Positions 1-20,750 of a stretch of DNA of 64,000 bases are shown piece by piece. The first letter of the stretch is position 1. Every line of letters starts with the position of its first letter. The notes beneath the pieces were generated by a model. The model did no database searches and was not told the origin of the DNA. It saw nothing but the letters and a program-made list of their open reading frames with translations. A program made the translations under genes and the position numbers. The stretch is taken from assembly GCA_020055645.1 (NCBI GenBank), contig CM034546.1:134685875-134749874 (forward strand), written 5' to 3'. This DNA comes from Tomocerus qinae. Taxonomy: Eukaryota > Arthropoda > Collembola > Entomobryomorpha > Tomoceridae.

Positions 1-88
1 CCTTTATATAACTGTTTCTATTATAAAGTTTATCATTAGAAAAGTTTGTGGTTCCAGAAAAAATGTCAGAAAACAAAAGAAAAATTAA
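1..88 (+). CDS. UDP-glycosyltransferase, last exon (3' end of a gene that starts left of the window)
   Basis: Reading from base 2, 28 codons end at a TAA (86-88). They give a hydrophobic stretch followed by a basic tail ending RKQKKN, almost the same as the C-terminus of the complete UGT gene at 12810-14785 (its final codons lie at 14700-14785). In that family this part is the single membrane-spanning helix plus the short cytosolic tail that anchors the enzyme in the endoplasmic reticulum. The similarity continues only about 25 bases past the stop. So this is a second UGT, upstream and on the same strand, and the retrotransposon at 802-11972 sits between two members of a UGT tandem cluster. 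The exon start lies outside the window. Confidence 0.75.
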   Translation, partial: LYITVSIIKFIIRKVCGSRKNVRKQKKN

Positions 89-797
89 GGGAAATAAACC
101 AATGATGATAGGAATCGACAATTAATCTTCAAAGTCACATTGCTTGCTAATAACTCCCTTTTTTCGGTTAGACTGTCGCAAAAGGTGCACAAAAGTTCCT
201 CTAAAACTTTATTGCAACTGTTGCAACGCTAAGAAAAAAGCTTCAGGTTTTTTGCAAAATGGTAATTTTGCAGCCACCCTTTTTTAGCCATTGCTACCTC
301 TTTTTTGACCTAAGCTAATAAATATAAAAATAATAAATGTAATAATGTAATAAATAATAAATGACCTGTTTATTAAGTGGTGTGAAACACCGCTATATAG
401 CGAAAACTTTAGATGTAAGCTTTAAAAAACCCGACCCACAACTCTGTAAAGGCGGATATAGACATAATCCTATTAATATTATAACTACAGTCTGAGATAA
501 AGAAATTTAACCTACATATTATATACTTGTATCTATCTATATACCTACGTATGTATGTCTGATAGGTAGAGCCCAGAAATGCGCAAGCGCTTATTGCACA
601 AAACAAAAGAACTACACTCTGGGAAATATTTGAATTTTCCGAAATTAAACCAAATTTTTAGAAATTCATTAAGAATTCAATAGAACTCCACACAAACTTC
701 TGAACTTGCCTGGGTTCTGCCATCAAATGCATAATATTATACAGCTATGGCAATGATGGTGCAAATATGCCATTCGGTAAGCACATGTTCCACTCAT
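89..797. other. Intergenic DNA between UGT 3' end and retrotransposon
   Basis: AT-rich sequence with no coding pattern that I trust. The last four bases before the retrotransposon (ATAT, 798-801) are its target-site duplication. Confidence 0.6.
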
Positions 798-801
798 ATA
801 T

Positions 802-1225
802 TATGAGGGTGTGGACGCAAGTGCTCACGAAATATGCAGTCCGCATATACGTAGAGCGGTCCTAGTTCGCCTTTATTCTATTTATGCCAGAAATGATGAA
901 ATAATATGTGTGATTCAAGTTACCCGTGATACCGAAAAGTCCAATAATGCCCGATGATCCACAGGAAAGTTCAGGAACACAATGTATTATTTATTGCACA
1001 CAAAGAATAATCAATTAGAATGAGAAATGAACTTTAGAAAATAATGAAATAAATGTATTGAACACAAAACTGGCGTAGTCTCCCCGTCCCAGGTTCTCCA
1101 GCAACTGGTGTGTCAAACGGAGCTCCTCGCGTAGTCTTTCCGCTGCACTATGCAAATTGGTGGGTTGCTGAGGTGGATAGTTGGGTGGTGACGTCATGAG
1201 GAGTGGGCTGGTAGCCATCCTCATA
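802..1225 (-). repeat. 3' LTR (424 bp)
   Basis: Direct repeat of 10415-11972 once the 1132-bp nested element and its TA duplication are removed; lengths then agree exactly (424 bp each). Ends are TATGAGG and CCTCATA. On the element strand the ORF3 reading frame closes on a TGA formed by the first bases of this LTR. Confidence 0.9.
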
Positions 1226-1871
1226 TCCTCCCCCACTTCGATCCCCCCCTCACTGTGCGGGTGTCGGATCGAAACCGCTGGTCATACGCAGGAAAATGGT
1301 GTCGTCCGAGATCCTTTGTTGTCTCCGTGTAAGTCCTCCTATGGTAATACTCTTCCCTTGGTCTCGTACGATACTCTGGCATCCTTGACGGCTGACTTTC
1401 TTTCTGTAGTCCCATCCTATTTCCTCGTATATTGCTATCCGGTCTGGTTCCTCTAGATGTCGAAGGACCATTCTGTCCATGGTTCTGCTGTAACTTCTTC
1501 CTAAGTCTCTTGATCTCCTGGTTTTTCCTGTAGAGTTTCTCTTTCAAGAGTTGCTTCTGATAGGCTTCTGGATGTTCTTCCTTCAGATGAGCTAATTTGG
1601 CCTTCCGGTTCCTCTTATTCGGGCAATTCTTCCCTAGATGGCCTTTGAGTTGACACCTACTACATTTTACTGTTGAGAGATCTCCGTGTCCATTTAGTAC
1701 TTGATCAGTTTCCGGTTGATCTGGTCTCCTTGGTGGGTTTAAGTCGTTGTGACTGTTGACATTTGGGGGTACTGTTCGTGGCTGATCAGAAGTATTTTCT
1801 CCAACTTTCTCTCTTGGTGGGGTTGCGAATTCATTGTCCGGTGCGTCGACGCGTAAGACGTCGTCTTCCCA
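1221..1871 (-). CDS. ORF3 C-terminal part: CCHC zinc knuckle plus basic coiled region, downstream of an in-frame TAA
   Basis: The frame is exactly that of the exonuclease ORF upstream and follows its TAA (1872-1874) without further stops until a TGA at the LTR edge. About 216 codons. It starts with a Pro/Asp/Asn-rich linker, then a zinc knuckle reading C-S-R-C-x4-H-x4-C (about 1630-1675), then a Lys/Arg/Leu/Gln-rich helical stretch (about 1480-1560) and an Arg/Tyr-rich tail. Zinc knuckles of this spacing bind nucleic acid in retroelement Gag proteins. There is no good start codon of its own, so I infer that it is, or recently was, the C-terminal part of the exonuclease protein, reached by stop readthrough or cut off by a nonsense change. 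Coherent amino-acid composition supports real coding history. Confidence 0.6.
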   Translation of the reverse strand, partial: WEDDVLRVDAPDNEFATPPREKVGENTSDQPRTVPPNVNSHNDLNPPRRPDQPETDQVLNGHGDLSTVKCSRCQLKGHLGKNCPNKRNRKAKLAHLKEEHPEAYQKQLLKEKLYRKNQEIKRLRKKLQQNHGQNGPSTSRGTRPDSNIRGNRMGLQKESQPSRMPEYRTRPREEYYHRRTYTETTKDLGRHHFPAYDQRFRSDTRTVRGGSKWGRI

Positions 1872-2918
1872 TTATTCTTCCTGGGGATCCGCTGCAAAGA
1901 ATTTTGGAGCATTCGTCATGATGATGGCTTCGTCGTCGCTGACTATCTCGTAGTACTCGATATCACTATCCTCGTCGTCTGATAATGGGGGTCCAAGTGT
2001 AGTATGTCCCGCCGGCTGATTCTCGATAACTGTGTCTTCAGTAAAGATGTCTACTATATGTTGGCGGTATGGAAGAATTAAAACATCCGTGAATGGATCT
2101 AGAATTTTTGCCACTTCCTCGAAGGATTTAGGATTCTTCTGTACCAATGTCCGCAAAGTGTATGACGAAATAAGATTGAGCTCGCTCTCATCTAAAGATT
2201 TTGCCATGTCTCGCCTCCATTCGTATAGGTCTACTAGTAGTTCCTTCTGCTTCGATGAAAACTTCTCGAACTCAGGATCTGCTTTCGGATTGGGGGCTTT
2301 TCTATGACTGTAGATCACGTTAGCAGTCTTGTTGGACTTCTTTATGATGTCCCGTCCTTCAACTGTGTCATCAATATGATGGTAACATTTTGCCCAAACT
2401 TCCATAAGTTTAGCACTGTCTGTTGCCGCATACTTCCTCTGTCTATCATGAAGTGGTCGCTTCCTCCAGTCAGAGTAGGTGCAGAGATGATCCGAAGTAA
2501 ACGTAGGTTCCTTTAGAATCGTTCGGACCATAGTGTCAAAAGCGACGTTTTCGCTTCCGCCGACGATCTTGAAGTACAAGTGTTGGGTGTCAATGAGTCC
2601 AACGGTGAAAATTTGGTAGTCTCTTTGAAGATGTCGAATGTCATTGGATGCGCCATGAGCTATTTTGATGACATCCGGGCTTTCAAAAATTGGTTTGAGA
2701 CGTTTCACGATAAACTTGGTCATTCCGGGTGCAAAGGGGTCAATGAGGTAAGTCTTCCCCATGGTTGAGATTTGGATTAATGCCGTCATTCCGTGAAACG
2801 AATGAGTGTCGTGGTTCTCCAGGTCAAAGGCAAAAACTGTCACATTTTTCAATCTGCGGTATAAGTCTTCTGCTCTATTGTTGTCGTTGACGAACAGTGT
2901 ATGGCCAACCGATTCTGG
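1872..2918 (-). CDS. Retrotransposon ORF3: EXOSC10/Rrp6-like DEDDy 3'-5' exonuclease with HRDC-like region
   Basis: Numbering from the TTG at 2852 (326 codons), the three exonuclease motifs are complete: D10 and E12 in FDLE, D71 in HGASNDI, and Y141/D145 in YAATD, the DEDDy signature of the RNase D family. The surrounding sequence (SFHGMTALIQIST, SDWRKRPL) matches the EXOSC10/Rrp6 subgroup, which trims RNA 3' ends as part of the nuclear exosome. Residues about 195-260 (RKQ/WRRD pattern, then a Ser/Tyr helix) look like an HRDC domain, the usual partner in that family. An acidic tail follows (DDEDSD). The frame is open to 2918 but lacks an ATG; it probably continues from the adjacent 5' ORF through a frame change near 2918-2930. 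Location between pol and the 3' LTR is where env or other accessory genes sit. Function in the element is unknown; RNA processing or defence evasion would be guesses. Confidence 0.85.
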   Translation of the reverse strand, partial: PESVGHTLFVNDNNRAEDLYRRLKNVTVFAFDLENHDTHSFHGMTALIQISTMGKTYLIDPFAPGMTKFIVKRLKPIFESPDVIKIAHGASNDIRHLQRDYQIFTVGLIDTQHLYFKIVGGSENVAFDTMVRTILKEPTFTSDHLCTYSDWRKRPLHDRQRKYAATDSAKLMEVWAKCYHHIDDTVEGRDIIKKSNKTANVIYSHRKAPNPKADPEFEKFSSKQKELLVDLYEWRRDMAKSLDESELNLISSYTLRTLVQKNPKSFEEVAKILDPFTDVLILPYRQHIVDIFTEDTVIENQPAGHTTLGPPLSDDEDSDIEYYEIVSDDEAIIMTNAPKFFAADPQEE

Positions 2919-3259
2919 TTAGGTCTAAGCATAGTTTTTGTCGGTCTCCAATTTCTGATGATGTCGGCATTCGGATTTCTTGAAACCGGAAATTCGTCTT
3001 GACGGTTCAGGTAACGTCTTTCGTTAAGATACTCTGGATTCTCTTCTTGAGATCTCTTGAGACAAACTCCCAATTGATGTGAAGCTTTCCTGACCTTCAC
3101 ATGATATTTGTCCTCCGGATCGTACGGAAGCTTAAATGCATGATCCCCGAACAAATCTTGCTTGGCGGCTACGCTTCCAGTTGACTTTCGGGTGAACACA
3201 CCCTTAGTATTGCGCTCCCGCAGGTTGTTACGATGCCCGTCTTTCACGTATCTTGACAT
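2849..3259 (-). CDS. ORF3 N-terminal part (basic, unknown)
   Basis: ATG at 3259 opens 136 codons ending at 2849 (the frame is also open upstream to about 3301). The product is basic, Arg/Asn/Lys-rich, with no domain I recognise. Its last residues run out of frame just where the exonuclease frame opens, and the positions near WRPTK (about 2935-2950) resemble the segment that precedes the exonuclease domain in EXOSC10-type proteins. I infer that 3259-1221 was one gene (N-terminal basic region, exonuclease, HRDC-like, zinc knuckle) now split by one frame change and one stop. Confidence 0.55.
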   Translation of the reverse strand: MSRYVKDGHRNNLRERNTKGVFTRKSTGSVAAKQDLFGDHAFKLPYDPEDKYHVKVRKASHQLGVCLKRSQEENPEYLNERRYLNRQDEFPVSRNPNADIIRNWRPTKTMLRPNQNRLAIHCSSTTTIEQKTYTAD

Positions 3260-3260
3260 C

Positions 3261-3280
3261 CTGTGGATATTAAGAAAGTA
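3261..3280 (-). promoter_or_regulatory. Probable 3' splice site for a spliced ORF3 mRNA
   Basis: On the minus strand a pyrimidine-containing stretch ends in CCACAG immediately before G-ATG of ORF3 (AG at 3262-3261, ATG at 3259). Accessory genes of Gypsy-type elements (for example env) are often expressed from a spliced transcript, so this acceptor could deliver the ORF3 start. Inference from consensus only. Confidence 0.4.
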
Positions 3281-3390
3281 TTGAGTATATTGAATTATCA
3301 CTTAAGTCCGGAAACGCACTTAGTATGGTGACTGTATTATAACGTGTATATCTGCAAAACCGCATAGTATTGACACGTACACGGGTTTTA

Positions 3391-3919
3391 ACACCGTGGG
3401 TTGACGGTTAAAAGATGGTAACCCCAGTGAGTTGACTGCTATAAGTAGTAACCTCAATGGGTTGACGCTTAATACATGGTAACCTCAGTGGGTTGACTGG
3501 TTTTGAGTAGTAACCTCCGTGGGTTGACTGCTTAATAAGTGGTAACCTCAGTGAGTTGACTGCTATTAGAGTGGTAACCCCAGTGGGTTGACTGTTATTA
3601 GAGTAGTAACCCCAGTGGGTTGACTGTTATTAGAGTGAGAGTGGTAACCCCAGTGGGTTGACTGCTATTATAGTGGTAACCCCAGTGGGTTGACTGTTAT
3701 TAGAGTAGTAACCCCAGTGGGTTGACTGCTATTATAGTGGTAACCCCAGTGGGTTGACTGTTATTAGAGTAAAAACCCCAGTGGGTTGACTGCTATTATA
3801 GTGGTAACCCCAGTGGGTTGACTGCTATTATAGTGGTAACCCCAGTGGGTTGACTGGTATTAGAGTAGTAACCTCAGTGAGTTGACTGTTATTAGAGTAG
3901 TAACCCCAGTGGGTTGACG
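3391..3919. repeat. Minisatellite, about 17 units of 31-33 bp, between pol and ORF3
   Basis: Tandem units with core CCCCAGTGGGTTGACTG followed by an AT-rich part (TATTAGAGTAGT or similar). Left-hand units are more diverged than the central ones, which are nearly identical. One unit carries an extra GAGAGT. It lies inside the retrotransposon, in the gap between the end of pol and ORF3. Confidence 0.95.
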
Positions 3920-4244
3920 TTGCAGTGCTGCCCTTATCTAATGGAGATTGTTGTGGTGACCAGTTGGCTAACACGCCGATGTATGTCTATCTGTGTTTAT
4001 TTAAATAATTAGCTGGTATATGCATGTTTTTGTTTATGTGTCCTGTTATGATGCCGATTGAGATTGAAAGTACGGATGAAGGATATCCGTACCACCGTAT
4101 GAATGTGATACACACAATAATAGACTAACTTAACCTATAATAAACTTCTATATACAGTAGAAAAGAAGATGGTTAGTGATAGTATTTTGAGTACTGTCCA
4201 GGGACGTACTGATGTCTTTTCGGGCGCAGAGTATTAGAGTCGCC
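3920..4244. other. Retrotransposon pol-to-minisatellite spacer
   Basis: Non-coding on inspection in both strands; contains no recognisable domain. Confidence 0.5.
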
Positions 4245-7016
4245 CTAGGAAACTTCTGGCTTCTTTCTTGATTTTGAGGTAATTTTTGAAACAGAAACAT
4301 TTTTTTGTGGTTTTGGCATTTTTAAGTAAAGTTTTGGAGAATTTTTCGAACGTTTGAAATACGGTTTTATATCCGAGACGTTTCTCTTCCCTAACGAAGA
4401 TTTTGTCTTCTCGTCAAAGATTTCATAAGTGACAGGTGTGATCTGTGACTTAATGATGAACGGACCCTTCCACGCTGGGGCTAACTTCGCGGAGAAGTTC
4501 AGCGCCGCATCTGAAAGTACGTGGTTCCTTATTAACACTTGCTGTTCCACAGCATAGGAAACTTGACGATAATGGCGATCATAGTCATCCTTATACGCAA
4601 CTTGGGCTTCAACAATGTTGTCTCTAACCCAATTGATGATCTGCAACAATTTAGCTGGGACTTCTTCCAACTTCTTCCTCGCAGCATCAAAATCAATTTC
4701 TCTTGAATCCATGAGTGTCCTATCGAATGGTAAAGCAATCTCTCTTCCGAGGTTAAGCAGAGCAGGGCTGACTTGAGTTGTGTCATGCACAGCAGAACGT
4801 AACCCGAGTCCGAAGAACTGCAGATGCTCATCCCACGAAGACTGTTGACTGTCGATGAAACACTTAATCATAGTCTTCAATGTACTATTCACTCTTTCGA
4901 CCTGGTTAGGTTGCGGGTGATACACACTCGTAAACCTGTGATCCACACTCCAGTCTTTACATAACTTCTTCAACTTCTTGGACATAAATTGATCTCCATT
5001 ATCTGAAACAAGTATTTTTGGGGCTCCAAAATGACAAAAGATCCATTCCAGCCAATACTTCAACTGCGATGAAGTCGCTGCTCTCATTGGGATCAACTCA
5101 ACCCATTTTGACAATTGGTCTTGAACTACCAGTAAATATTTATTCGCTCGTCCTCCCGAACTGGTGGGGAACGGTCTTTGAAAATCCACATATAGTGTAT
5201 GAAAAACGGTCGGTGCGACGTCCGAAATTCCCATCAAACCTGCTTTCAGTTGATGCGATGCTTTAACTTTTTGGCAAGTGTCGCAAGACTTCACATATTC
5301 TCTCACGTCTTTCTCCAAATGGGGCCAGTACGCTTGTGATCTCACACGACGTAAAGTCTTCCTTATGCCCATATGACACGCTTCAGGTACATCATGAAAC
5401 TGAAACAACACGTGTGTCCTCAAACTCTTCGGAATAAATGGAAGTAAGTATTTCTGTGACTTCTCCTGTTCAGTGTTGGCTTCTCCAGTACCAACTTTTT
5501 CGCTATTCTTGCTTTTAGTGTGACCGCGTGCACTCGGTTCCCGCACACTATTATCCAACTTGGGAGTAACGGTTTTGCCATTAACCCTACTGTCATCTGT
5601 AGAATTTACTACTTTCTTCGATGCAGCTTCCTTAAGCAATTTCTTCGAACATCCTGGCTTCTCATCCATGCTAAGTTTACTGCCTTCTTCTGCTGATTGC
5701 GCAACTTCAGCAGATGCAGTCTTCAACTCAACTCGTTCCTCTTCTGCATTCGCTCTCTGGTGATCCTCACCATGAGCTGAACGATTCACGCTTCTCCAAT
5801 TCAAGTCCATGAATCTATAGAGTAGATTGTCCTTGAAGCAGTACTGGGAGTTCTTCGTGGCCATCGAATTACCCATTACTGACTTCAGAATCTTGTTGCA
5901 TTCTTCATCCGTCTTCTGTTCTTTTCTGATCGTTGCAAGATCTGGACCTTTAAATAGTAATCCAAAACATGGAACGAACATGACATCCGGATCCTCATCG
6001 ACAAAATTAGACTCATTTCCCGTAGGTTCCACTGGAGCTCGCGACAACGCGTCCGCTATCACATTCTCCTTGCCTGAGATATGGCGAATCTTGTCTAAAT
6101 AAGGTTGTAACCATCTTCCTAGTTTGGTGTTTGAGTCCTTGTTTCCGTTTAAATATTGAACAGCTTTATTATCCGTTAAAATGAAGAAGTCTTCACCCCA
6201 GATGTAGTCATAAAACTTTTCTACTGCCCACAAGATTGCTAAGAGTTCCTTTTCACAAGCATGAAGACTTAGCTCAGATTGTCGTAATAATTTGCTGGCA
6301 AACTGAATGATTCTTTCTTTCCCGTCGATGTTCTGCGTAAGAATAGCTCCTAGTCCAATACTAGATGCGTCGCATTTTATAATGATTGGATATTCGTAAT
6401 CGATCCCGTTGAGCATTGTGTTTTCGCACATATACGATTTTAAGGTTTCAAAGGATTTCTGCTGTCTACTGCCCCAATACCAAGTCGTCTTCTTCCTTAA
6501 CAAGGAGTTTAAGGGTTCTGCAAGTGTGGCGAAGTGTGGGATGAACGCTTGACAGTAGCCAATTTTTCGTAAGAATCTTCGAACTTCTTGTATATTCTTT
6601 GGAGCTGGATATTCCTTTACTGCTCTGATCTTCTCCGGATCCATACTAATACCTTGAGCGCTGATTACGTGACCCAAAAATGTAATAGAAGTCTTTGCAA
6701 ACTCGCATTTTTCTCTGTTTATAGACAAATTTGCTTGCTTCAATCTATCGAGGATAATCTGCACGTGTTTGTAGTGTTCTTCTAAAGTTTGTGAAAATAT
6801 AATAATGTCGTCGACAAAAACGAAAGCGAAGTTCCCGATGAGTCCATCCAAAACTTTGTTCATGAGTTCCACAAACGTTTTTGGTGCATTCTTAAATCCA
6901 AATGGCATTACTAAAAATTCGTATAGAACGCCATCTACTGTGAAAGCTGTCTTCCCGATACTATCTTTATGCATTGGAATCTGCCAAAATCCTGATCGTT
7001 GATCGATACGACCCAA
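4245..7016 (-). CDS. pol: pol, second segment: reverse transcriptase (from the catalytic palm), RNase H, integrase
   Basis: 923 codons. RT palm box FVDD at residues 67-70 (the YxDD equivalent), RNase H with D in KCDASS, E in CEKELLA and D in LTDNKAV (about 205-290), then HHCC zinc-binding and DDE integrase: D in YVDF, D in SDNG, E in QVERVN (about 540-750), and a GPF/Y module (WKGPFII) near the C-terminus. Between RNase H and integrase lies an unusual insert of about 110 residues rich in Glu, Ser, Lys and Ala (about plus-strand 5460-5790). The upstream part of RT is in another frame (6967-7866); a one-base length difference around 7010-7016 separates them, so as read the polyprotein is broken. 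The element's position and intact catalytic residues elsewhere suggest the break is recent or a sequencing indel. Confidence 0.93.
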   Translation of the reverse strand: MGRIDQRSGFWQIPMHKDSIGKTAFTVDGVLYEFLVMPFGFKNAPKTFVELMNKVLDGLIGNFAFVFVDDIIIFSQTLEEHYKHVQIILDRLKQANLSINREKCEFAKTSITFLGHVISAQGISMDPEKIRAVKEYPAPKNIQEVRRFLRKIGYCQAFIPHFATLAEPLNSLLRKKTTWYWGSRQQKSFETLKSYMCENTMLNGIDYEYPIIIKCDASSIGLGAILTQNIDGKERIIQFASKLLRQSELSLHACEKELLAILWAVEKFYDYIWGEDFFILTDNKAVQYLNGNKDSNTKLGRWLQPYLDKIRHISGKENVIADALSRAPVEPTGNESNFVDEDPDVMFVPCFGLLFKGPDLATIRKEQKTDEECNKILKSVMGNSMATKNSQYCFKDNLLYRFMDLNWRSVNRSAHGEDHQRANAEEERVELKTASAEVAQSAEEGSKLSMDEKPGCSKKLLKEAASKKVVNSTDDSRVNGKTVTPKLDNSVREPSARGHTKSKNSEKVGTGEANTEQEKSQKYLLPFIPKSLRTHVLFQFHDVPEACHMGIRKTLRRVRSQAYWPHLEKDVREYVKSCDTCQKVKASHQLKAGLMGISDVAPTVFHTLYVDFQRPFPTSSGGRANKYLLVVQDQLSKWVELIPMRAATSSQLKYWLEWIFCHFGAPKILVSDNGDQFMSKKLKKLCKDWSVDHRFTSVYHPQPNQVERVNSTLKTMIKCFIDSQQSSWDEHLQFFGLGLRSAVHDTTQVSPALLNLGREIALPFDRTLMDSREIDFDAARKKLEEVPAKLLQIINWVRDNIVEAQVAYKDDYDRHYRQVSYAVEQQVLIRNHVLSDAALNFSAKLAPAWKGPFIIKSQITPVTYEIFDEKTKSSLGKRNVSDIKPYFKRSKNSPKLYLKMPKPQKNVSVSKITSKSRKKPEVS

Positions 7017-7866
7017 AGTAAGCTGCTTTCGGTAAGCTCTTTAAGATATGTTGTCCGTTGTGCATCGGAGTTCTGTTTGTTCTTGTTACTTTATTTACTT
7101 TCTTGAAGCTGACACACATTCGTAAGTCTCGGTTGTGTTTGGGAGCCATGACAACGTTAGAGTTGTAAGGAGAAGTTGACTGACGAATCAATCCTTTCCT
7201 GACAAGGTCTTCGGTTTGTCGTCGAATTTCTTCGGCTATTTTTCTACCCGGTCTTCTGTACGGTGTATACACAGGTGTATCAGGTGCATCAATGTAATGT
7301 TCGATAAGAGTTGTTTTTCCGAGCACATTTTTCCCAGTTACTGTAGGATATTGGTCTAATAGATCCTTAAACATTTTCTGGATATCTTGTTCCGTTACTG
7401 ATCTTACTTCATTAAAATTAAGTGCAAATAGGTATTTCCTCGGTGTTCGATTGATGATTGAATAATTTCGGTGTTTCGGATCGTCCTTTAACCAAAACGT
7501 ATTTCCCTCGTAGTCTAAAACCATACGTGAAGATATAATAAGATCTTTCCCAATCAACACGGGAACATCCAATTTTTCCATAACGTAAAATCGATGAGTA
7601 ATCCTTTTATGGCCTAATTGAATTTCTAAAATTAACTTGCCGATTGGAGTAACTTTCTGTCCATCAGCCATAGTTTGTGGTCTGACGGGACACGTTTCAA
7701 TTCTTCTAGCAATTTTCTGTGCAAAAGATTTCCGAATAAATGAAAAATCCGAACCCGGATCGATATATGAAGGAGTTACTGTAGCTGTGTCGTTGAAAAA
7801 TACTGAAACTGCTGATAAACGTTGGTTTAGTTCTTCTTCTTTTATGGGAAGACAGGCATCAGGAAA
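6967..7866 (-). CDS. pol: pol, first segment: protease and N-terminal reverse transcriptase
   Basis: Open from 7866 after a TAA (7867-7869) to a stop at 6967. The retropepsin active-site loop reads IDPGSDFSFI (about 7755-7785), with Pro where Thr or Ser normally follows the catalytic Asp; the flap and second strand (PVLIGKD) follow. Then come the RT entry motifs (YRRPGRK, LIRQSTSPYNS, CVSFKKVN) up to the frame break near 7010. No ATG precedes the protease motif in this frame; the first is at 7671, downstream of it. Gag ends at 7884 and this frame opens only at 7866, so no gag-pol overlap for a simple frameshift is visible. Confidence 0.88.
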   Translation of the reverse strand, partial: FPDACLPIKEEELNQRLSAVSVFFNDTATVTPSYIDPGSDFSFIRKSFAQKIARRIETCPVRPQTMADGQKVTPIGKLILEIQLGHKRITHRFYVMEKLDVPVLIGKDLIISSRMVLDYEGNTFWLKDDPKHRNYSIINRTPRKYLFALNFNEVRSVTEQDIQKMFKDLLDQYPTVTGKNVLGKTTLIEHYIDAPDTPVYTPYRRPGRKIAEEIRRQTEDLVRKGLIRQSTSPYNSNVVMAPKHNRDLRMCVSFKKVNKVTRTNRTPMHNGQHILKSLPKAAYFGSYRSTIRILADSNA

Positions 7867-7883
7867 TTATTCTGCCTCCCCCG

Positions 7884-9479
7884 TTACTGGTTTAAAGAAT
7901 TATTTTCTTCAGGGTAGTATTCTTGGGATTCATCGACCCAATTTTGATCTTCATCTTGTACAGCCATAAGTCTGCCTCTTCTCTGGGGACAATCGCGACT
8001 TTTGTGGCCAAACTCTCCACAGGTATAACATTCAGACCCTTCGCGTGGTTGTTGCCCGGTTCCTCTGCCCTGAGAGTTTTGCTGGGACCTGTTTCCTGAA
8101 GTACTTGGGCCAGAGTTTTGATTTTGCCAATTATTTTGGGATCTTTGTTGTTCTTGGCGATTTGTACCATTATTCTGTGACTGATACTGTTGTTGATTCT
8201 GTTGCTGCTGATTCCGTTGATATTGCTGATTCTGTTGATTCTGCTGGTTGGTCTGTTGGCGATTCTCGCCCTGACCTCCGAAATTCTGTCGTCCGTTTCC
8301 TCTGAAATTTCCTCTTCCACGGAAATAATTGTTTCTCCCTCTGTAGGATCCACTTCCTCTAAAGGGTCTTCCTCGTCCATTGTTTTGTCCGTTACCTCTA
8401 ACTTGTACACCAGCATCAGGGGCTAAAGAATTTGCTTTGCCTTCCCTGGCATCCTGTGCACGTAAGTCTTCAACTGCCACTTTGGCTCTTAAAATAAGGT
8501 TGACTGCTGTGTAGGCTCCAATGTCTCCCATTGCAAGCTTGATGCACGGTAACAGGCCTTGCCTACATCTCCTTATTGACTCCGCCTCCGGTTCATCAGG
8601 GAAAACTTGTCTTGCTAACCGTACTATGTCCCAAACGATCTTCTCTACGTTTTCTTTCTCCCCTTGGGTCTTCGACATCAGGTACTGAATCCTCTTATTG
8701 CGTTCCAGCCATGTATCATACTTTGCTATGAAAGCATTTTTGAAGTCATCCCAAGTCCAATCTGGTTGTCGTACATGTTCGAACCATGCTTTGTTCTCCT
8801 TGATGAGAATGGTAGAGAGCATATACAGCCATTGGTTTCTTGCATATCCCTGACTAGTGTAGTATGCTTCTATGTCTTGCAGGCAATTAGCTGCTGTTGT
8901 CTCATAAACGTTATACCTTGGCATAGGGACGTTAGGGTTTCCAGGTCCTGGATGACGCATATACTGATTTCCATTGGGGATCGCCTGTCCATTGGCATTG
9001 GGGATCTGCCGTCCATTTGCGTTGGCAATGACACGACCATTTGCATTGGCAATTACGCGCCCATTTGCATTTTCTTGTTGCCTGAAATGCTCAATTATCA
9101 AGCGTTGTTGCTCCTCAGGTAAATTAAAACGAAGATGCTCTGGTAGGTGATTGCCTGGGACCACATTCAAAATGTTCTGCTGAGGGATTACATTAAAATT
9201 ATTTTGTTGGGGACCGGCATTCAAATTATTTTGTTGGGGACCCCTCTGTTGATCCGCAGCCTTTCCCTCTGCATTATTATTCCTATCCATGATTTCTTGT
9301 ATATCACTCTCTGATTCTTGTGAAACCTGCTCTCCAGGTGAGTTGCTGTTAGCCTGTCGGGGACGCCTACGATACCTTTCAAGTCTTGCTTGTATCCTTC
9401 TTTGTATTTCTGCTTGAAACTCTGGATCGTGCCTTCTGTTAAGTCTTGACCTCCTTTCCGATTTCTCGCTATCACTCAT
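7884..9479 (-). CDS. gag: gag (capsid domain and CCHC zinc knuckle)
   Basis: 531 codons from an ATG at 9479. N-terminal Arg-rich segment, then a run of Asn/Gln-rich short repeats including several copies of NANGR, a capsid-like helical domain (about residues 190-340, with WLYMLSTIL, AWFEHV and the QGLLP region), a long Gln/Asn/Arg/Gly-rich linker, and a zinc knuckle C-Y-T-C-x4-H-x4-C near residue 485. This is the structural protein that packages element RNA. The frame is intact and closes 15 bases before the TAA that bounds the pol frame. Confidence 0.92.
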   Translation of the reverse strand: MSDSEKSERRSRLNRRHDPEFQAEIQRRIQARLERYRRRPRQANSNSPGEQVSQESESDIQEIMDRNNNAEGKAADQQRGPQQNNLNAGPQQNNFNVIPQQNILNVVPGNHLPEHLRFNLPEEQQRLIIEHFRQQENANGRVIANANGRVIANANGRQIPNANGQAIPNGNQYMRHPGPGNPNVPMPRYNVYETTAANCLQDIEAYYTSQGYARNQWLYMLSTILIKENKAWFEHVRQPDWTWDDFKNAFIAKYDTWLERNKRIQYLMSKTQGEKENVEKIVWDIVRLARQVFPDEPEAESIRRCRQGLLPCIKLAMGDIGAYTAVNLILRAKVAVEDLRAQDAREGKANSLAPDAGVQVRGNGQNNGRGRPFRGSGSYRGRNNYFRGRGNFRGNGRQNFGGQGENRQQTNQQNQQNQQYQRNQQQQNQQQYQSQNNGTNRQEQQRSQNNWQNQNSGPSTSGNRSQQNSQGRGTGQQPREGSECYTCGEFGHKSRDCPQRRGRLMAVQDEDQNWVDESQEYYPEENNSLNQ

Positions 9480-10414
9480 TTACTTATTATGCTAATGAGA
9501 ATTTGAACTAGCTTTTGTGTGTCTATCTATGAAGTCAATATAATTATAGTAAAAGTACGCAAGTACCCATAATAAAGAAAAATGCCCAAAAGGTTAAATG
9601 GTTAAATCTACATAAATTTGATAAAATTAGGAAGATATGTGCCCTAGTAAGCCTAAGTCCTATGTGACGCACAACACGAATATGTATATTTGGTGACACA
9701 CCAAATTTCGAGAAACACTCGAGTCACTGTATATTACGTGATACACGTATATAGTGGGGAACACCCGATGATGAAAGGTTCGGTGATACACCTACCTTCG
9801 ATATCCCTCGACCAATGTACTTATCTAAGTATACTACGTGAGCCACACGCCAATGTCCTATACCCACAGTGGTGTTATGGACATGCACTATAACCAAGAC
9901 GGTGGGGTTACTTAGATATGTGTTTAATGTATACGTACCTTGATGTAGTTGTGACCGATATCTCTGCTATACTTAAAGTCGTTCCTGTGATGTCGTACTC
10001 GTGCACACAAAGGTAATGTAGACCGAGTTGGCGCCTTACAAATTTGCATACGATGACTAAAAATAAAAGAGTCGTTTTAACCTACAATTTCTTCACTATA
10101 CATAGGCACAAAATTCAACTTTAAGATTCAAAATTTTACAAAATTTCTACATTTTCTATAATAAAAATTATGTCAAAATGATTATAAAATTGGGCTCTTT
10201 CCGTTAAAATTATTAAATTCCCAAAATTCCGTTTTTCCCTAACTTGGGGCGAACTGCACAAGACCCGTGCTTTTGGAAATTTACACTTAAATTTCGAGAA
10301 ACACTCGACAAATAATATTCTTCGTAAAACACGACAATATTATTTCTCCGAAAATAATTATTTCACCGATTTCAGTGCACAAAATAGAAATAAAGTCGGG
10401 TTTCGGCAACAATT
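9480..10414 (-). other. Retrotransposon 5' untranslated leader
   Basis: 935 bases between the 5' LTR and gag. Contains repeated short motifs (AATTTCGAGAAACACTCGA occurs near 9702-9725 and 10290-10308) and several GTGA-ACAC stretches, but no coding frame. Primer-binding site expected next to 10414 was not recognised. Confidence 0.7.
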
Positions 10415-11972
10415 TATGAGGGTGTGGACGCAAGTGCTCACGAAATATGCAGTCCGCATATACACCCTGATTGCTAATTATGTCCACACGGTCTAAGCTC
10501 TCTAACTCCTAAATGGAGGCTGCTACGAAAATGAGAGAACCACCGTTAGAAAGATGAGGAAATTTCCTACAAAACAGACTATAAGGACAAATTTATTGAT
10601 TTCCACTTAAAAAATTAAAAATCAGGAAGTGAAATACCAAATTTTCATGTCAAATTCCTCATTTCTCCACAACATTCTTTTTTTAATGAATCTTTGTTCC
10701 TAAGTTTCGGGATTTTTTGGAAGTGGTTTAAACCTGTTTTAAAGAGTAGTTGGAGGTTGAAACTCGCTAAAAGATCTGTTACAATGAATATTTGAATTTC
10801 CAGAGATCACTTTGTGGTTGAATTGCCTAATAGGGGTGATAAAGTCTTTTGAACTTAAACTCAAATTTTAAACAAGCTTCAAGGTACCAAAAACTGTAAT
10901 GCAGTTGAAATGGGCAGCAGACCATTTGCATTTTCTTGTCTTTGCACATTTCACTTCAAATACAGATTTGGATTGACAACAAAAATTGTTTGTAGTGGGT
11001 AGCTCATTTTCAAGAAAAATCTTTGTTTCTTTAAACTTCCTCATAATTTAAACAACGAAGCTGTCTTTTGGATTGGAGCCAATAAGGTTGACTTGAGCTA
11101 ATTTTTCACGAAAATCAATGCTTGAATCCGTTTCAGATTGATAGAAGAACTTTTCTTTTACCACCTCCAAACAAGATTTAACTTGGAATAAAAAATGTTC
11201 CGCAAACCTGGGATCTTTACCTCAAATCAACTAGGGTGGTGTTTAAATCTTCGTTTTGATGTCTAAGCTGATAACAATAAATTTTTACCGATTTATTGTT
11301 ATGATTACCTCTTTGATGAACATCCACCACTTTAAGCAGCGTTAAAAGCTTAGAATTTACCATGTAAAATGAGCAACCTCATCAACTGCAGACAAATACA
11401 TACAATTTTAGGCTACTTTTGTCATATTTCATAAAATTGCCTAGCTTGAAACTAGAGTCAATAAAATTATCCTTATAGTCTGTTTTGTAGGAAATTTTCT
11501 CCTTTTTCTAACGGTGGTTCTCTCATTTTCGTAGCAGTCTCTGTTTAGGAGCTAGAGAGCCTAGACTGTGTGGACATTATTAGCAATCAGGCTGTACGTA
11601 GAGCGGTCCTAGTTCGCCTTTATTCTATTTATGCCAGAAATGATGAAATAATATGTGTGATTCAAGTTACCCGTGATACCGAAAAGTCCAATAATGCCCG
11701 ATGATCCACAGGAAAGTTCAGGAACACAATGTATTATTTATTGCACACAAAGAATAATCAATTAGAATGAGAAATGAACTTTAGAAAATAATGAAATAAA
11801 TGTATTGAACACAAAACTGGCGTAGTCTCCCCGTCCCAGGTTCTCCAGCAACTGGTGTGTCAAACGGAGCTCCTCGCGTAGTCTTTCCGCTGCACTATGC
11901 AAATTGGTGGGTTGCTGAGGTGGATAGTTGGGTGGTGACGTCATGAGGAGTGGGCTGGTAGCCATCCTCATA
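10415..11972 (-). repeat. 5' LTR, interrupted by a nested MITE
   Basis: Same 424-bp sequence as 802-1225 in two parts, 10415-10462 and 11595-11972, with 1132 bp plus a TA duplication inserted between. 1558 minus 1134 equals 424. Confidence 0.92.
10463..11594. mobile_element. Non-autonomous DNA transposon (long-TIR MITE, TA target) nested in the 5' LTR
   Basis: Terminal inverted repeats of about 137 bp (10463-10600 and 11458-11594), starting CACCCTGATTGCTAAT and CAGCCTGATTGCTAAT, roughly 90% alike by eye. TA is duplicated at both sides (10461-10462, 11595-11596), and the uninterrupted LTR at about 840-860 shows the empty site. TA targeting suggests the IS630/Tc1/mariner superfamily. No transposase frame. 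Confidence 0.88.
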
Positions 11973-12079
11973 ATATATAATAAAATATTATACAGTTTAA
12001 GCGTGAAATGTCATTGGGTGTATGGTTATTCAATGTAATCTTATCTTTATTAACACAATTTTTTTAATGTTTCCCATTA

Positions 12080-12620
12080 TTAAGTAGCGAAGCTGCATTA
12101 TACCAATGCCCGTCGGTCTTCTGTCTGTCCTTATGGTATCACAACTATTATAGAATGGTTTAATATAACCAGCTCAAACTTCATTTTTTAAGCGTAATCT
12201 AGGGATAAAAATTAATGTCAAAATTTGAAAATTGTCAAAATCGGATACACCCTTTGGACGTGGTTCGGAACTTAAAAATGGAGTTCTGTGTATGTCATCA
12301 AGTCGTATAATAGCTCATGTTAAAGTTAATTCGAGTTTCAAAATATGCATTATTAGATACGCCCTTACCTTGTTTGTGTGGGTGGTTAAAAAACCAAAAA
12401 TCAAAATAACTTTAATTCTACACATAGTAGAACGTCATGAGATGATTCGCTCAAAAGGTTATTCGTCGGGTCAGGTCAACGTCAAGTCAGACAGGGTTAC
12501 AAGGATAAAAATCATGGGAAAAATACTTCACAAAATGTAATGTGCGTCTCTAATCATGATTATCTCCGCTACTTTTTTAAATGCATTTGGCATGGTTTAT
12601 TATTACGATAACTACGATGT
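12080..12620. repeat. Dispersed repeat, copy 1
   Basis: Shares several blocks with 61990-62400: a TAAGTAGC start, a CTGTCTGTCC stretch, GTAGAACGTCATGAGAT, CTCAAAAGGTTATTCG and a CGCTACTTTTTTA block. The order is the same in both copies. Type unknown; no coding capacity. Confidence 0.6.
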
Positions 12621-12809
12621 TAAGGTAAACTGGTAGATAAACCATGGACCGTGAGGACTAGTATAAGATAATAGTTGGAGATAATAATGCTGGTTTGAAA
12701 TGGTGTCTGTAAGTATTTGAAAAGTGTTGTTCGATGCAGTAGTTTAACTACTGTAGTTAATGTGCGTGCATGTGACTTTCGTTATTTTTTCTTCTCTCAA
12801 ACGGTCAAA

Positions 12810-14785
12810 ATGAAGAAACAAGTATTTCTGCTGTTGTTAATTTCTTCTACTTTACTTTTTGAAGTTGTTCATACCGATAAAATTCTGGTACTGACATTTT
12901 TCTCGAGTAAAAGTCATAAAATCACTTACATGAGACTGATTGAAGAACTTGCGAATCGAGGTCATGAAATAACAATTCTGTCACCCGTTAAGCCTATGAA
13001 GGAAATCAAAAATGTGAAGGAAATTCTAACATTTGATTTGGAAGAGGTATCCCTGGGAAAGCATAATTTCTTCGAGAAAAAACAAACAAACACTTTGACC
13101 AATCCCTTTTTCATGCTTCAAGAATTCGAACAAATCTGCCGAAAGACTTACGACCTCCCGCATGTCATGGCCATTTTGAAAGAGAAGTTCGACCTTATTT
13201 TTATGCAGCCTCTTTTCAATGATTGTGCATTGGGAATCGTCTACAGGCTTAAGGCCCCACTTGTGTTGTTCTACCCAACATCTGCACCAGGGTTTTTATT
13301 GTCCAAAATCGGCGGAGATGCGCCACCTTCAGTCACGTCAAATGTTTTCATGGGATATTCCGATGAAATGAACTTCTTTCAAAGGTTTGTCAACTTTGGA
13401 TTTTCGGCATTTTTTGAAGCCATCTTGCGATTTTCGTTCGAACCACACATGGCCTCCATTTATCGGGAGAAGTTGGGAGATGATATTCCTTCGGTACGAG
13501 AGATTCTTGCAAATACCTCCCTATTACTGTCTAATGGGCATTTTAGTATCAACAAACCTAAATCATTGCTCCCGGATGTTGTAAATGTCGGAGGAATCCA
13601 TTCACGACCAGCTAAACCTCTACCAAAAGTAAATCAATTTTTTAAAATTTAAACTTCATGTAAAATTGCTATATCTACGGTTAATAGTAATTGTCTTTGG
13701 AATTAGAATCCAAGTACGAGTTACAAAATCAAATCGTATAAGGGAATCGGGGAAAGATTTTAATAACGATACTTCTTTACAGGATTTGGAGGATTTTGTA
13801 GCTAAAAGTGGCAAAGATGGTTTCATCTTTTTCAGTATGGGTTCAGCTATTAGAGGTGACCAAATGCCCGAAGAAAGACGTAAACTGTTCATAAATGTCT
13901 TTTCGAAATTGAAGCAACAAGTCCTGTGGAAATGGGAGTCTGAAACGATGCCTGATCTCCCCAAGAATGTCAAATTGAGTAAATGGCTTCCCCAACAAGA
14001 TCTTCTGGGTCATCCGAATATCAAAATGTTTATCACGCACTGTGGAGGTGGAAGCACCGAAGAAGCCATTTATCATGGGGTTCCCCTACTTGGCCTACCT
14101 ATGTTCGGGGATCAACCTATGAATGCAGGACAAGCAAAGATTCATGACATTATTTTCCAATTGGAATGGAACGAATTAACGGAAGAACTGTTGTCCTACG
14201 GAATCAACGAAATTTTAAACAATCCAAAGTATATTTTGAAGATTTACATATTATTTAACTTTTATTTAATATAATAATATCGGAACGCATGTTTAACCAA
14301 GCAATAATTGCATAGTTGAAGTTAATTATTTACGTTAATGTTATTATTTCAGATATCGCAACAATGTACAAAAACTGTCTACAATTTTCAAAGATCAACC
14401 TGATGATCCTCTTAGGCGAGGTGTCTATTGGATAGAGTACATCCTACGCCATAAAGGTGAAAATGAAGAAATATCCTGATTTTCTAAATCGAAAAATAAT
14501 AGCGAAACAAATAACTTATCGTTTGATACAATGTTTTAAATATACATAATATTAAACATTTTTGTCTAATTGCATTATTTGTTGAAATATAATCAATTAG
14601 GTGCCCCACATCTGCGGTCTGCCTCTCGGAAGCTAAATTATATTCAGTATCATTCCTGGGACGTCTTGGCTTCCTACCTCGCAATACTTCTAGGAGCCCT
14701 TTATATCACTGTTTTCATTATCAGGTTTATTATTAAAAAAATTTGTGGTCCCAGAAAATATGTCAGAAAACAAAAGAAAAATTAA
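12810..14785 (+). CDS. UDP-glycosyltransferase, complete, four exons
   Basis: Exons 12810-13628, 13783-14228, 14353-14456, 14601-14785, with phases that agree and GT-AG introns, give 517 residues, the normal UGT size. The ATG at 12810 is chosen because a signal peptide ([16 protein letters not shown]) starts there. The N-terminal half should bind the acceptor. The donor-binding signature lies at residues about 341-384 ([35 protein letters not shown]) and ends with the Asp-Gln pair that contacts the sugar. A membrane helix and a basic tail ([10 protein letters not shown]) close the protein, so it faces the ER lumen. UGTs conjugate a sugar to small lipophilic compounds (detoxification, pigment, pheromone). 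Part of a UGT cluster with the exon at 1-88. The Cys after His in THCGGG replaces the more usual Gly. Confidence 0.92.
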
Positions 14786-18860: not shown

Positions 18861-20750
18861 ATGAAGTTTAAAATATTCATCACTTCAATTTTGGTTCTCA
18901 ATTCTTTGCATTCAGTCCACTGCGTCCGAAATTTGTCGTTCTATAGAAATTGTGATTTCAACCTGGTTGCCTTCAAAAATTCTATTTGGGAGACAAGGTT
19001 TTTGGTGTCTAATCAAAATACACAGCCATGGACAGTTGCCACTTCCGACTACAACAGAAGTGACTTTGGTCGGTATGAAAATAACCCAAGAGATTTGTCA
19101 CGTAATTTATGCAGTGTGAATATTCTAATGGAGCCAGACGATTCTTTCAAATGGTTAACTGATTTTTTTGGAAAGGAAATAAATCGTCTCAGATCAACAT
19201 TCTTAGTTGTCTATGACAGAAAAGTAGCAACACGCAAAAAGCATAATTGGTTATTTTATCTGCGAAAAGACTTGGTTAGTCCCATTTTCTTACTACTAAT
19301 TGATAACGCGACTTCAGATTCGGTATACACTCACCAACTTTATCAACAAGGATCGATGAAATCCCAGTCCTATTTTGAAGTAGAAATCACAAACGAAAGT
19401 TGGGAGAAAATTTGGTTTAGTTTAAATGGAAATATGCATGGAATTTATGTTGGGAGTGTGTCTACGAAAGTTGTGGGCGATTATGCTTCGGAAGGGCCTC
19501 ATTGCAAAATGTCTGCCTATTATGCAATAAAAAAATTCGGAAAGCCTTGTGACCCGCAATTTAGGGCCGTAGAAATGATATCAGATATGTTAAATTTTAC
19601 TGCACTTTATGCTAGGCATGAAAGCATTTTTAAATCAGAACAACTTTGTGGATGGATTTTTATGTTAGCCACTTATAATGACCTTTACTCCAACCGCTGG
19701 GATCAAACTACCTTTATTGAATACTTCCAAGAGAGCATTCCCTACTACTGCGAGCCATCCCCTAATTTCTATTCGGTGCCACTGTCGGTGTTAGTTCAAA
19801 ATACATTTGATGATCAATGCTGGCTTCTCATCTTCTCTCTTTTCCCACTCTCATTTTTAGTTTTAGTTTTCGGGTTGACTAATTCCTCCCACCCCAAGAA
19901 ACTGGAATGGATCTTGATGTCCTTGACAGCTGTTCTTTTAGACCAGGGAGTTGTTTATAACAGAAGAAGGAGTCTCTTCTTGGTAATAGCAACCACAGGA
20001 TTCGCAATCACTTCTCTCTATCAAACTTGGATAACATGCGAAATCATTGCACCCCCAGACAAGAAAATATTTAATGACTTCAAGGAACTCGTCGAAAATG
20101 ATTACAAATTACTGTCGATGAAAGATTCTCGAATTAAACAGGACAGCTACATTTGGAATTATAACATTTTCAAGAAATACAAAATGCATAAAAAGATAAA
20201 CTCCAGTATTTACATTTATGATTGGCAAAAAGAAGACCCAGAAAAACATTTTGGAAAGCCTAAAATTAATGCCAACGAAGTCAATTCGAAATTGCTGACA
20301 AACTATTCATTGAAATTATTTTCCTTTGCTATTAAAAAGTATAGTTACCATGTGGCAAGGATACCGAAACAAGTTTCAACTTATGGATTTTGTATGACAA
20401 CCAAAGAGGCTGATACTGCACATCCCAAGTTGTATATATTTCAATTTTGCCAGCGGCACAGTTTTGTATCGTTTTTCCAAGTGCTAATGGAAAAAGGATT
20501 TTTATATACTTGGAAAGAGCACGAATTCTTTAGACGTTCTCGTCTTTCGGATGAATTCTATTCGAAATTTAAATACGAAGAGGCTCAACCTATCAGAATA
20601 AACCTCAATATGAAAATGTCCACCATCTTTATCTTGTGTGCATATCTTTTTATAGCATCTGTAGCCGCATTTGTTATAGAATTAGTTTGGAAGGAATATT
20701 TTCCTTCACTAATATTTTGTAGACAGGCAGTGATCATTTATCCTAAATAA
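18861..20750 (+). CDS. Divergent ionotropic-receptor-like protein A, intronless
   Basis: 629 codons in a single exon. Signal peptide 1-22 (IFITSILVLNSLHSV), a long Cys-containing extracellular part (about 23-315), then TM1 (320-339, CWLLIFSLFPLSFLV), a re-entrant-like segment (348-362), TM3 (371-395, SLFLVIATTGFAITSLYQTW), a second extracellular lobe, and a last helix near 595-620 before a short tail. This layout is that of ionotropic receptors (glutamate-receptor relatives, ligand-gated cation channels in chemosensory neurons). I see no clear glutamate-binding residues, so it belongs with divergent IRs. A near-identical paralogue lies at 27447-29324. Confidence is good for the superfamily, none for the ligand. 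Confidence 0.75.
   Translation: MKFKIFITSILVLNSLHSVHCVRNLSFYRNCDFNLVAFKNSIWETRFLVSNQNTQPWTVATSDYNRSDFGRYENNPRDLSRNLCSVNILMEPDDSFKWLTDFFGKEINRLRSTFLVVYDRKVATRKKHNWLFYLRKDLVSPIFLLLIDNATSDSVYTHQLYQQGSMKSQSYFEVEITNESWEKIWFSLNGNMHGIYVGSVSTKVVGDYASEGPHCKMSAYYAIKKFGKPCDPQFRAVEMISDMLNFTALYARHESIFKSEQLCGWIFMLATYNDLYSNRWDQTTFIEYFQESIPYYCEPSPNFYSVPLSVLVQNTFDDQCWLLIFSLFPLSFLVLVFGLTNSSHPKKLEWILMSLTAVLLDQGVVYNRRRSLFLVIATTGFAITSLYQTWITCEIIAPPDKKIFNDFKELVENDYKLLSMKDSRIKQDSYIWNYNIFKKYKMHKKINSSIYIYDWQKEDPEKHFGKPKINANEVNSKLLTNYSLKLFSFAIKKYSYHVARIPKQVSTYGFCMTTKEADTAHPKLYIFQFCQRHSFVSFFQVLMEKGFLYTWKEHEFFRRSRLSDEFYSKFKYEEAQPIRINLNMKMSTIFILCAYLFIASVAAFVIELVWKEYFPSLIFCRQAVIIYPK

What the first reader, a model, noticed from the sequence alone, without database searches (positions are those of the whole stretch)
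1221..3301. A Ty3/Gypsy retrotransposon carrying an EXOSC10/Rrp6-like exonuclease gene
Between pol and the 3' LTR, where env-like genes normally sit, the sequence shows a complete DEDDy exonuclease (D10, E12, D71, Y141, D145 in the 2852 numbering) with an HRDC-like region. The closest family pattern is the nuclear-exosome ribonuclease EXOSC10/Rrp6. The gene is bracketed by element structures (minisatellite and pol on one side, polypurine tract and LTR on the other), so it is internal to the element rather than a neighbour. I know of no described Gypsy lineage with an exosome-type nuclease. Possible roles (trimming element RNA, countering small-RNA silencing, processing reverse-transcription intermediates) are speculation.
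Basis: partly seen in the sequence, partly recalled or inferred. Interest (0 to 1): 0.9.

Follow-up and report, generated by a model that had tools for sequence, protein, structure and literature searches.

The report
Jumping gene carrying RNA-trimming enzyme
A retrovirus-like jumping gene in this genome carries, where an envelope gene often sits, its own version of a cellular RNA-trimming enzyme (Rrp6 type), and a branch of related jumping genes has kept the enzyme's core under selection, which suggests that the elements use it.

Summary
The window has a Ty3/Gypsy element (802-11972, minus strand) with a third gene between pol and the 3' LTR. It encodes a DEDDy exonuclease with HRDC domain, closest to Rrp6/EXOSC10 by sequence and predicted fold; a zinc-knuckle-like tail follows. 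This copy's ORF3 is broken (one frame break, one stop), but two sister copies have it as one open frame. The genome proved searchable, and the gene marks an element clade: of integrase loci at least 45% identical to the query, 50 of 52 have an exonuclease hit downstream on the same strand; of those at most 41% identical, 0 of 54. The 19 exonuclease ORFs tested keep D-E-D-Y-D, and the exo region is under purifying selection (pooled dN/dS 0.12). The host's EXOSC10 is a separate intron-bearing gene, and the element ORFs form a sister clade to Rrp6/EXOSC10: an old acquisition, not recent capture. Precedent: DEDDy ORF3s in bdelloid rotifer LTR elements (Rodriguez 2017), for which no departure from neutrality was reported. 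New here are the Rrp6-type core with HRDC, the clade-wide retention and the selection. What the enzyme does for the element is untested; the host species is not identified.

The parts
802..1225 (-). 3' LTR (TATGAGG...CCTCATA)
   Evidence: Blastn against the 5' LTR, pieces of 378 and 50 nt at 100%; edges read by eye
798..801 (.). Target-site duplication ATAT, 3' side
   Evidence: Read by eye from flanks printed
1226..1239 (-). Polypurine-tract-like stretch beside the 3' LTR
   Evidence: Sequence, (read by eye)
1221..1871 (-). ORF3 C-terminal frame (216 codons, same frame as the exonuclease but after a TAA); basic tail
   Evidence: Stop-to-stop frames; translation; one open frame with the exo part in L041 and L045
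1617..1667 (-). Zinc-knuckle-like motif C-x2-C-x4-H-x4-C in ORF3
   Evidence: zf-CCHC E 0.03, below cut-off; same spacing seen in P0019
1872..2918 (-). ORF3 middle frame: exonuclease and HRDC (348 codons)
2388..2891 (-). DEDDy 3'-5' exonuclease domain (PF01612)
   Evidence: E 3.8e-31; the genome search places it at the same bases
2103..2249 (-). HRDC domain (PF00570)
   Evidence: E 1.1e-6, above cut-off
2849..3259 (-). ORF3 N-terminal frame from its first ATG
   Evidence: blastp match to the N terminus of P0001, E 2e-9
3259..3262 (-). Splice-acceptor-like CAG|G just before the ATG (candidate for a spliced ORF3 mRNA)
   Evidence: Sequence; same in L041 and L045; no RNA evidence
3389..3918 (.). 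32-bp minisatellite between pol and ORF3
   Evidence: Tandem Repeats Finder; varies among copies
4245..7040 (-). pol frame: RT, RNase H, integrase (931 codons)
   Evidence: Pfam; frame
6967..7866 (-). pol frame: protease and start of RT (299 codons)
   Evidence: Aspartyl protease / Ty3 peptidase matches below cut-off; frame
7884..9479 (-). gag (531 aa) with zinc knuckle
   Evidence: Pfam zf-CCHC 1.5e-6; Retrotrans_gag 6e-4, below cut-off
10415..11972 (-). 5' LTR, split by the insertion at 10461-11596
11973..11976 (.). Target-site duplication ATAT, 5' side
   Evidence: Read by eye from flanks printed

Best explanation
ORF3 is an accessory gene of one clade of Ty3/Gypsy retrotransposons, acquired long ago, probably once, from an Rrp6-type cellular exonuclease, and handed down with gag-pol. 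It encodes a 3'-5' exonuclease core (exo + HRDC) with new ends: a short N-terminal extension and a basic, cysteine-containing or zinc-knuckle-like tail. Shown: position, intact active-site residues, co-inheritance with pol, purifying selection, separation from host EXOSC10. Inferred: it is made from a spliced subgenomic RNA, works free of the exosome as an active nuclease, and its tail ties it to RNA. The role I think most likely is trimming 3' ends of RNAs in or around the element's own ribonucleoprotein: preparing element RNA or primer ends, or destroying competing or silencing RNAs. Shares within this claim: element-RNA or primer trimming about 0.45, counter-silencing about 0.35, other (including single-stranded DNA ends) about 0.2.
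For: Exo + HRDC. AlphaFold2 model of a relative's ORF3 (P0020, 12-row alignment, mean pLDDT 71, exo core mostly above 90) best matches Rrp6 catalytic cores, top five E 2e-20 to 1e-18, TM 0.72-0.77 on the target. DEDYD kept in 19 of 19 exo ORFs tested: 16 in elements, 3 without nearby pol; L048 (partial domain) and L049 (broken) were left out. Integrase loci at least 45% identical: 50 of 52 with an exo hit within 7 kb downstream; at most 41%: 0 of 54. With window pol as query: 43 of 46 merged loci. Exo, RT and IN trees recover the same subfamilies and the same deep split. Pooled dN/dS of four independent pairs: exo 0.12 (Fisher p 1e-23), HRDC region 0.12, N-term 0.27, C-term 0.25. Tree: the element ORF3s, the three solitary ORFs, P0001, P0009 and P0010 form one group (99/98), sister to Rrp6/EXOSC10 including the host's (99/89); both together 95/88.
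Against: No biochemical or RNA data. dN/dS is by the simple Nei-Gojobori method; the close pair L041/L045 gives 0.87 (four changes), and the four deep pairs that were printed give 0.56-0.62 at near-saturated dS. Between subfamilies ORF3 changes faster than pol (dN 0.36-0.52 against 0.085-0.13), so mainly the core is strongly held. The order of branching among the L030-type subfamilies differs between the exo and pol trees, with weak support. Two integrase loci of the clade lack an exo hit. 54 of 106 exo hits are not linked to an integrase listed: two of these are host EXOSC10 exons, a few are linked, and the rest are unexplained. HRDC is below the Pfam cut-off or unmatched in the subfamilies other than the window's.
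Confidence: 0.75

Rival explanations
1. Counter-defence: the enzyme destroys or shortens host small silencing RNAs (piRNA or siRNA), or binds them as a decoy, so that elements carrying it escape silencing.
For: Fast change of ORF3 outside the active site, dN about 3-5 times that of pol in the five between-subfamily pairs computed for both, fits an arms race. The model's fold list includes Nibbler (7jw2, 7jw6) and Exd1 (5fis, 5fiq) among weaker matches; their links to small-RNA pathways are stated in passages of PMC13269885 (Nibbler) and in the Discussion of PMC5408684 (EXD1).
Against: Best fold and sequence matches are Rrp6, not Nibbler or Exd1. No small-RNA data. Fast change also fits loosely structured tails: pLDDT under 50 over residues 370-490 of the model.
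Confidence: 0.3
2. Passenger: a host exonuclease mRNA caught by chance, neutral for the element.
For: For bdelloid extra ORFs the authors report no significant departures from neutrality (PMC5408684, Discussion). The window copy's ORF3 is broken.
Against: Retention in 50 of 52 loci, DEDYD in 19 of 19, dN/dS 0.12 in the exo region, long open frames across divergent subfamilies.
Confidence: 0.03
3. The exonuclease acts on DNA: it trims 3' ends of cDNA or processes reverse-transcription intermediates, as WRN-type or proofreading relatives do.
For: DEDDy enzymes include DNA exonucleases (passage in PMC5408684); the gene travels with RT and integrase.
Against: Sequence, fold and tree place it beside Rrp6, an RNA enzyme.
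Confidence: 0.15
4. Host genes, not element genes: a multi-gene family of exonucleases that happen to lie near Gypsy elements.
For: Some intact single-exon exo ORFs lie without pol nearby (L040, L042, L047).
Against: Position and strand fixed behind integrase: 50 of 52, with 0 of 54 in the more distant Gypsy integrase loci; ORF3 lies between paired LTRs in the window and in L041.
Confidence: 0.01

Closest known systems
DEDDy exonuclease ORF3 of bdelloid rotifer LTR retrotransposons Juno and Vesta, and of Athena/Terminon elements (Rodriguez, Kenefick, Arkhipova 2017, PMC5408684; abstract, found passages and Discussion read)
   Same: A DEDDy-type 3'-5' exonuclease gene downstream of pol in LTR retrotransposons; authors report invariant residues intact and the ORFs more similar among elements than to cellular enzymes.
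   Different: There at least two independent acquisitions, called RNase D-like, with motif DEDD changed to DEED; the word HRDC does not occur in the text; no departure from neutrality reported. Here one Rrp6-sister clade with HRDC, marking a Gypsy clade, under purifying selection.
Rrp6 / EXOSC10, nuclear-exosome exoribonuclease
   Same: DEDDy exo plus HRDC order, predicted fold, sister position in the tree.
   Different: ORF3 is in a mobile element, lies in one open frame in intact copies, has other ends, and falls outside the cellular clade that holds the host's own intron-bearing EXOSC10.
env-bearing Gypsy elements (errantiviruses; recalled)
   Same: A third ORF between pol and the 3' LTR.
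   Different: The product is a nuclease; Pfam finds no envelope domain in the ORF3s scanned.

Membership tests
Ty3/Gypsy LTR retrotransposon | Paired LTRs with a target-site duplication | tested here: met
   LTR pieces at 100%; TSD ATAT read by eye
Ty3/Gypsy LTR retrotransposon | Order gag, PR, RT, RNase H, IN (integrase after RNase H) | tested here: met
   Pfam order in window and L043; protease matches below cut-off in both
Rrp6/EXOSC10 family | DEDDy catalytic residues in a PF01612 domain | tested here: met
   19 of 19 ORFs tested
Rrp6/EXOSC10 family | HRDC domain after the exonuclease | tested here: met
   Above cut-off in the window family (window, L041); below cut-off in L032, L035, L036, L043 and no match in L030
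Rrp6/EXOSC10 family | Groups with Rrp6/EXOSC10 and not with RNase D | tested here: met
   Joint group 95/88, but as sister clade, not inside
Rrp6/EXOSC10 family | N-terminal PMC2NT domain (PF08066; its role recalled) | tested here: inconclusive
   No match in five full ORF3s at E 1, but the cellular control P0021 has none either; the genome search for PF08066 did not complete
Rrp6/EXOSC10 family | Bound to the nuclear exosome | not testable with these tools
   No protein-interaction data
Bdelloid-type DEDDy ORF3 | DEDDy gene as ORF3 behind pol of an LTR element | tested here: met
Bdelloid-type DEDDy ORF3 | Sequence kinship with Juno/Vesta/Athena ORF3 | not tested
   Their sequences were not at hand

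The most novel reading that the evidence does not exclude
A clade of Gypsy elements has turned an Rrp6-type exoribonuclease into a fixed third gene that attacks host small silencing RNAs (or otherwise blocks RNA silencing): an RNA-degrading counter-defence encoded by a retrotransposon, perhaps spread over more than one host species (relatives P0001, P0009, P0010, whose genomic surroundings were not seen).
Probability: 0.25. Interest if true: 0.92.

Novelty: new variant of a known kind. Interest (0 to 1): 0.72.

Why it matters
The one original report of DEDDy ORF3s in retroelements that I found is from rotifers, with catalytic activity not demonstrated and no departure from neutrality reported. 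Here the gene marks a Gypsy clade, with its active site and core held by selection over divergent subfamilies. That makes the open question of what a retrotransposon does with an exonuclease testable by plain biochemistry. It also gives an Rrp6-like enzyme that evolved apart from the cellular Rrp6 clade.

Tried and rejected
Recent chance capture of the host gene: rejected by the separate intron-bearing EXOSC10 and the tree. Neutral passenger: rejected. Viral-contig scans with P0001 and with ORF3: no relatives. Rfam on 1-12500 at gathering scores: nothing. Host species: not settled. The nearest named relative of the ORF3s is a springtail protein (P0010, Orchesella dallaii), but that does not name the host; that the host is an arthropod is my guess. 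Bdelloid kinship: could not be tested. PMC2NT absence: not usable, because the control was negative too. Gypsy sub-lineage name: not assigned, no labelled references. Papers: answered searches are (one search was rejected for a term). Searches held 703, 25 and 93 papers and listed only 20, 8 and 10. Among the rows listed, the only original report of an LTR-element exonuclease ORF that I recognised was PMC5408684. PMC5718144, PMC6431247 and PMC6338049 mention that finding or the Terminons (passages read); PMC6338049 also cites Novikova 2008 and Ustyantsev 2017 in the same sentence, not looked up. PMC3985635 and PMC13269885 (passages read) report no such ORF there. The other listed papers were seen as listings only.
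Full report
What is there. On the minus strand of 802-11972 lies a Ty3/Gypsy LTR retrotransposon. LTRs: 3' at 802-1225; 5' at 10415-11972, split by an inverted-repeat insertion of about 1.1 kb (arms 10461-10599 and 11458-11596). The aligned LTR pieces (378 and 50 nt, overlapping by 3) are identical, and the flanks read as ATAT duplications (by eye). Gag is 9479-7884; protease-RT-RNase H-integrase run from 7866 to 4245 with a frame break near 7000. A 32-bp minisatellite follows (3389-3918), then ORF3 to the edge of the 3' LTR.

ORF3. The frame at 2918-1872 holds a PF01612 exonuclease (3.8e-31) and an HRDC domain (1.1e-6). The piece before it (ATG at 3259) is in another frame; the piece after it (1871-1221) is in the same frame beyond a TAA and carries a zinc-knuckle-like motif that scores below the Pfam cut-off. 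So this copy's ORF3 is broken. In the sister copies L041 and L045 the whole ORF3 is one open frame of 692 and 691 codons. Just before the ATG, window, L041 and L045 share a pyrimidine-rich stretch ending in CAG, which would fit a spliced mRNA; there is no RNA evidence.

What it is related to. By sequence the best solved structures are Rrp6 and EXOSC10. A model of a relative (P0020, the ORF3 of L030) is confident over the exo core and matches Rrp6 cores from Trypanosoma, human and yeast. Three protein searches found mainly proteins that are named ribonuclease D or fall with RNase D or Rrp6 in the tree, plus three closer relatives: P0001 and P0009 (unnamed) and P0010 from the springtail Orchesella dallaii. 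P0001 also matches the ORF3 N-terminal piece (E 2e-9). In a tree of 56 exonuclease domains, the 16 element ORF3s, three solitary ORFs and these three relatives form one group (99/98), beside a group of Rrp6/EXOSC10 that holds the host's own gene (99/89); the two together have 95/88 support. Several branches are long, so deep placements are less sure than the support values suggest. The host EXOSC10 lies around C4:9054850-9056250 in at least three exons.

The gene belongs to a clade. The window's assembly (334 Mb) could be searched. It holds 106 exonuclease-domain hits. The window's LTR family has 21 hits; the four other loci with paired LTRs each have an exonuclease hit between two LTRs. Against this, three intervals of about 5 kb between LTR hits at C1:8266270-8281944 contain no exonuclease hit; the one that I could read (in L049) shows no gag-pol match either. 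With window pol as query, 43 of 46 merged loci have an exonuclease hit within 8 kb downstream on the same strand (49 of 1011 candidates were scored); of the three others, one (C4:20475588) abuts an exo hit that the count missed because the two overlap by five bases. With the L030 integrase as query (106 of 802 candidates scored), 50 of 52 loci at 45% identity or more have the exonuclease within 7 kb downstream (436 to 6056 bases, median 932), and 0 of 54 at 41% or less do. The scored candidates are the best ones, so both counts are of a capped list; the sharp break with identity is what matters. Decayed exonuclease copies would be missed by the E-value limit. Among 20 fetched loci, pol matches lay upstream of the exonuclease in 15; in L049 pol lies mostly outside the stretch; L040, L042, L047 and L048 have none. 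RT, integrase and exonuclease trees give the same subfamilies and the same deep split, with the exonuclease evolving about twice as fast on the deep branch; the order among the L030-type subfamilies differs with weak support.

Selection. Within subfamilies, 13 exo-core pairs with dS above 0.05 have dN/dS 0.02-0.26. Exceptions: L041/L045 0.87 on four changes, two near-identical pairs, and four deep pairs at 0.56-0.62 with dS near saturation; deep pairs with dS of 1.5 or more were not printed. For whole ORF3, values range 0.08-0.38, with the two closest pairs (L031/L032, L041/L045) at 0.58. Pooling four pairs that share no branches: exo 0.12, HRDC region 0.12, N-terminal 0.27, C-terminal 0.25, each with Fisher p below 0.001. 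Gag (0.07-0.27) and pol (0.07-0.13) are in the same range. Between subfamilies ORF3 dN is 0.36-0.52 against 0.085-0.13 for pol and 0.27-0.29 for gag, so the core is held while the rest changes fast.

Mechanism. Shown: a conserved nuclease core, co-inherited with pol and kept by selection. Inferred: an active 3'-5' exoribonuclease, probably free of the exosome, tied to nucleic acid by its tail, that trims RNA ends in the element's life cycle or attacks silencing RNAs. Nothing here separates these two, and I rate them close.

Compared with what is known. Rodriguez et al. 2017 (PMC5408684; abstract, found passages and Discussion read) reported DEDDy ORF3s in bdelloid Juno and Vesta elements and in Athena elements, suggested 3'-end processing of element RNAs, and saw no significant departure from neutrality. 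The window's case is therefore a new variant of a known kind: an Rrp6-sister enzyme with HRDC, clade-wide retention, and clear purifying selection. The host is not identified; from gene content I guess an arthropod. In ten answered paper searches (three with capped lists) I recognised no report of such an ORF outside rotifers; the library holds open-licence papers only.

Noticed in passing
10461-11596: Insertion of about 1.1 kb with 139-bp inverted ends (91% complementary) inside the 5' LTR, apparently flanked by TA: a DNA transposon that landed after the retroelement.
   Followed up: partly
L040, L042, L047, L048: Exonuclease ORFs of 386-431 codons (L048: 181) with no pol match in the fetched stretch, DEDYD kept in the three tested; possible domesticated or source genes. 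L048's hit has four places with the same score; L042 lies beside hAT transposase-like ORFs.
   Followed up: partly
G000 C1:8266270-8291413: Five LTRs of the window's family; four lie about 5.1 kb apart, with no exonuclease hit between those four.
   Followed up: partly
G000 C1:51212428-51238061: Three related pol-exonuclease units, pol starts spaced 8330 bases: apparently tandem copies; the third has its exonuclease about 6 kb further on.
   Followed up: no
18861-20750 and 27447-29324: Two closely similar ORFs (629 and 625 aa), 8.6 kb apart; the first has no Pfam match at 1e-3. They look like membrane receptors, perhaps ionotropic-receptor type (my guess).
   Followed up: no
33892-34956, 40091-41095, 44832-45851, 52731-53765: Four-member family of ORFs of about 340 aa on the minus strand; the first member has no Pfam match at 1e-3.
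   Followed up: no
12717-14274: UDP-glucuronosyltransferase-like gene pieces just outside the element (first piece PF00201, 8e-20).
   Followed up: no
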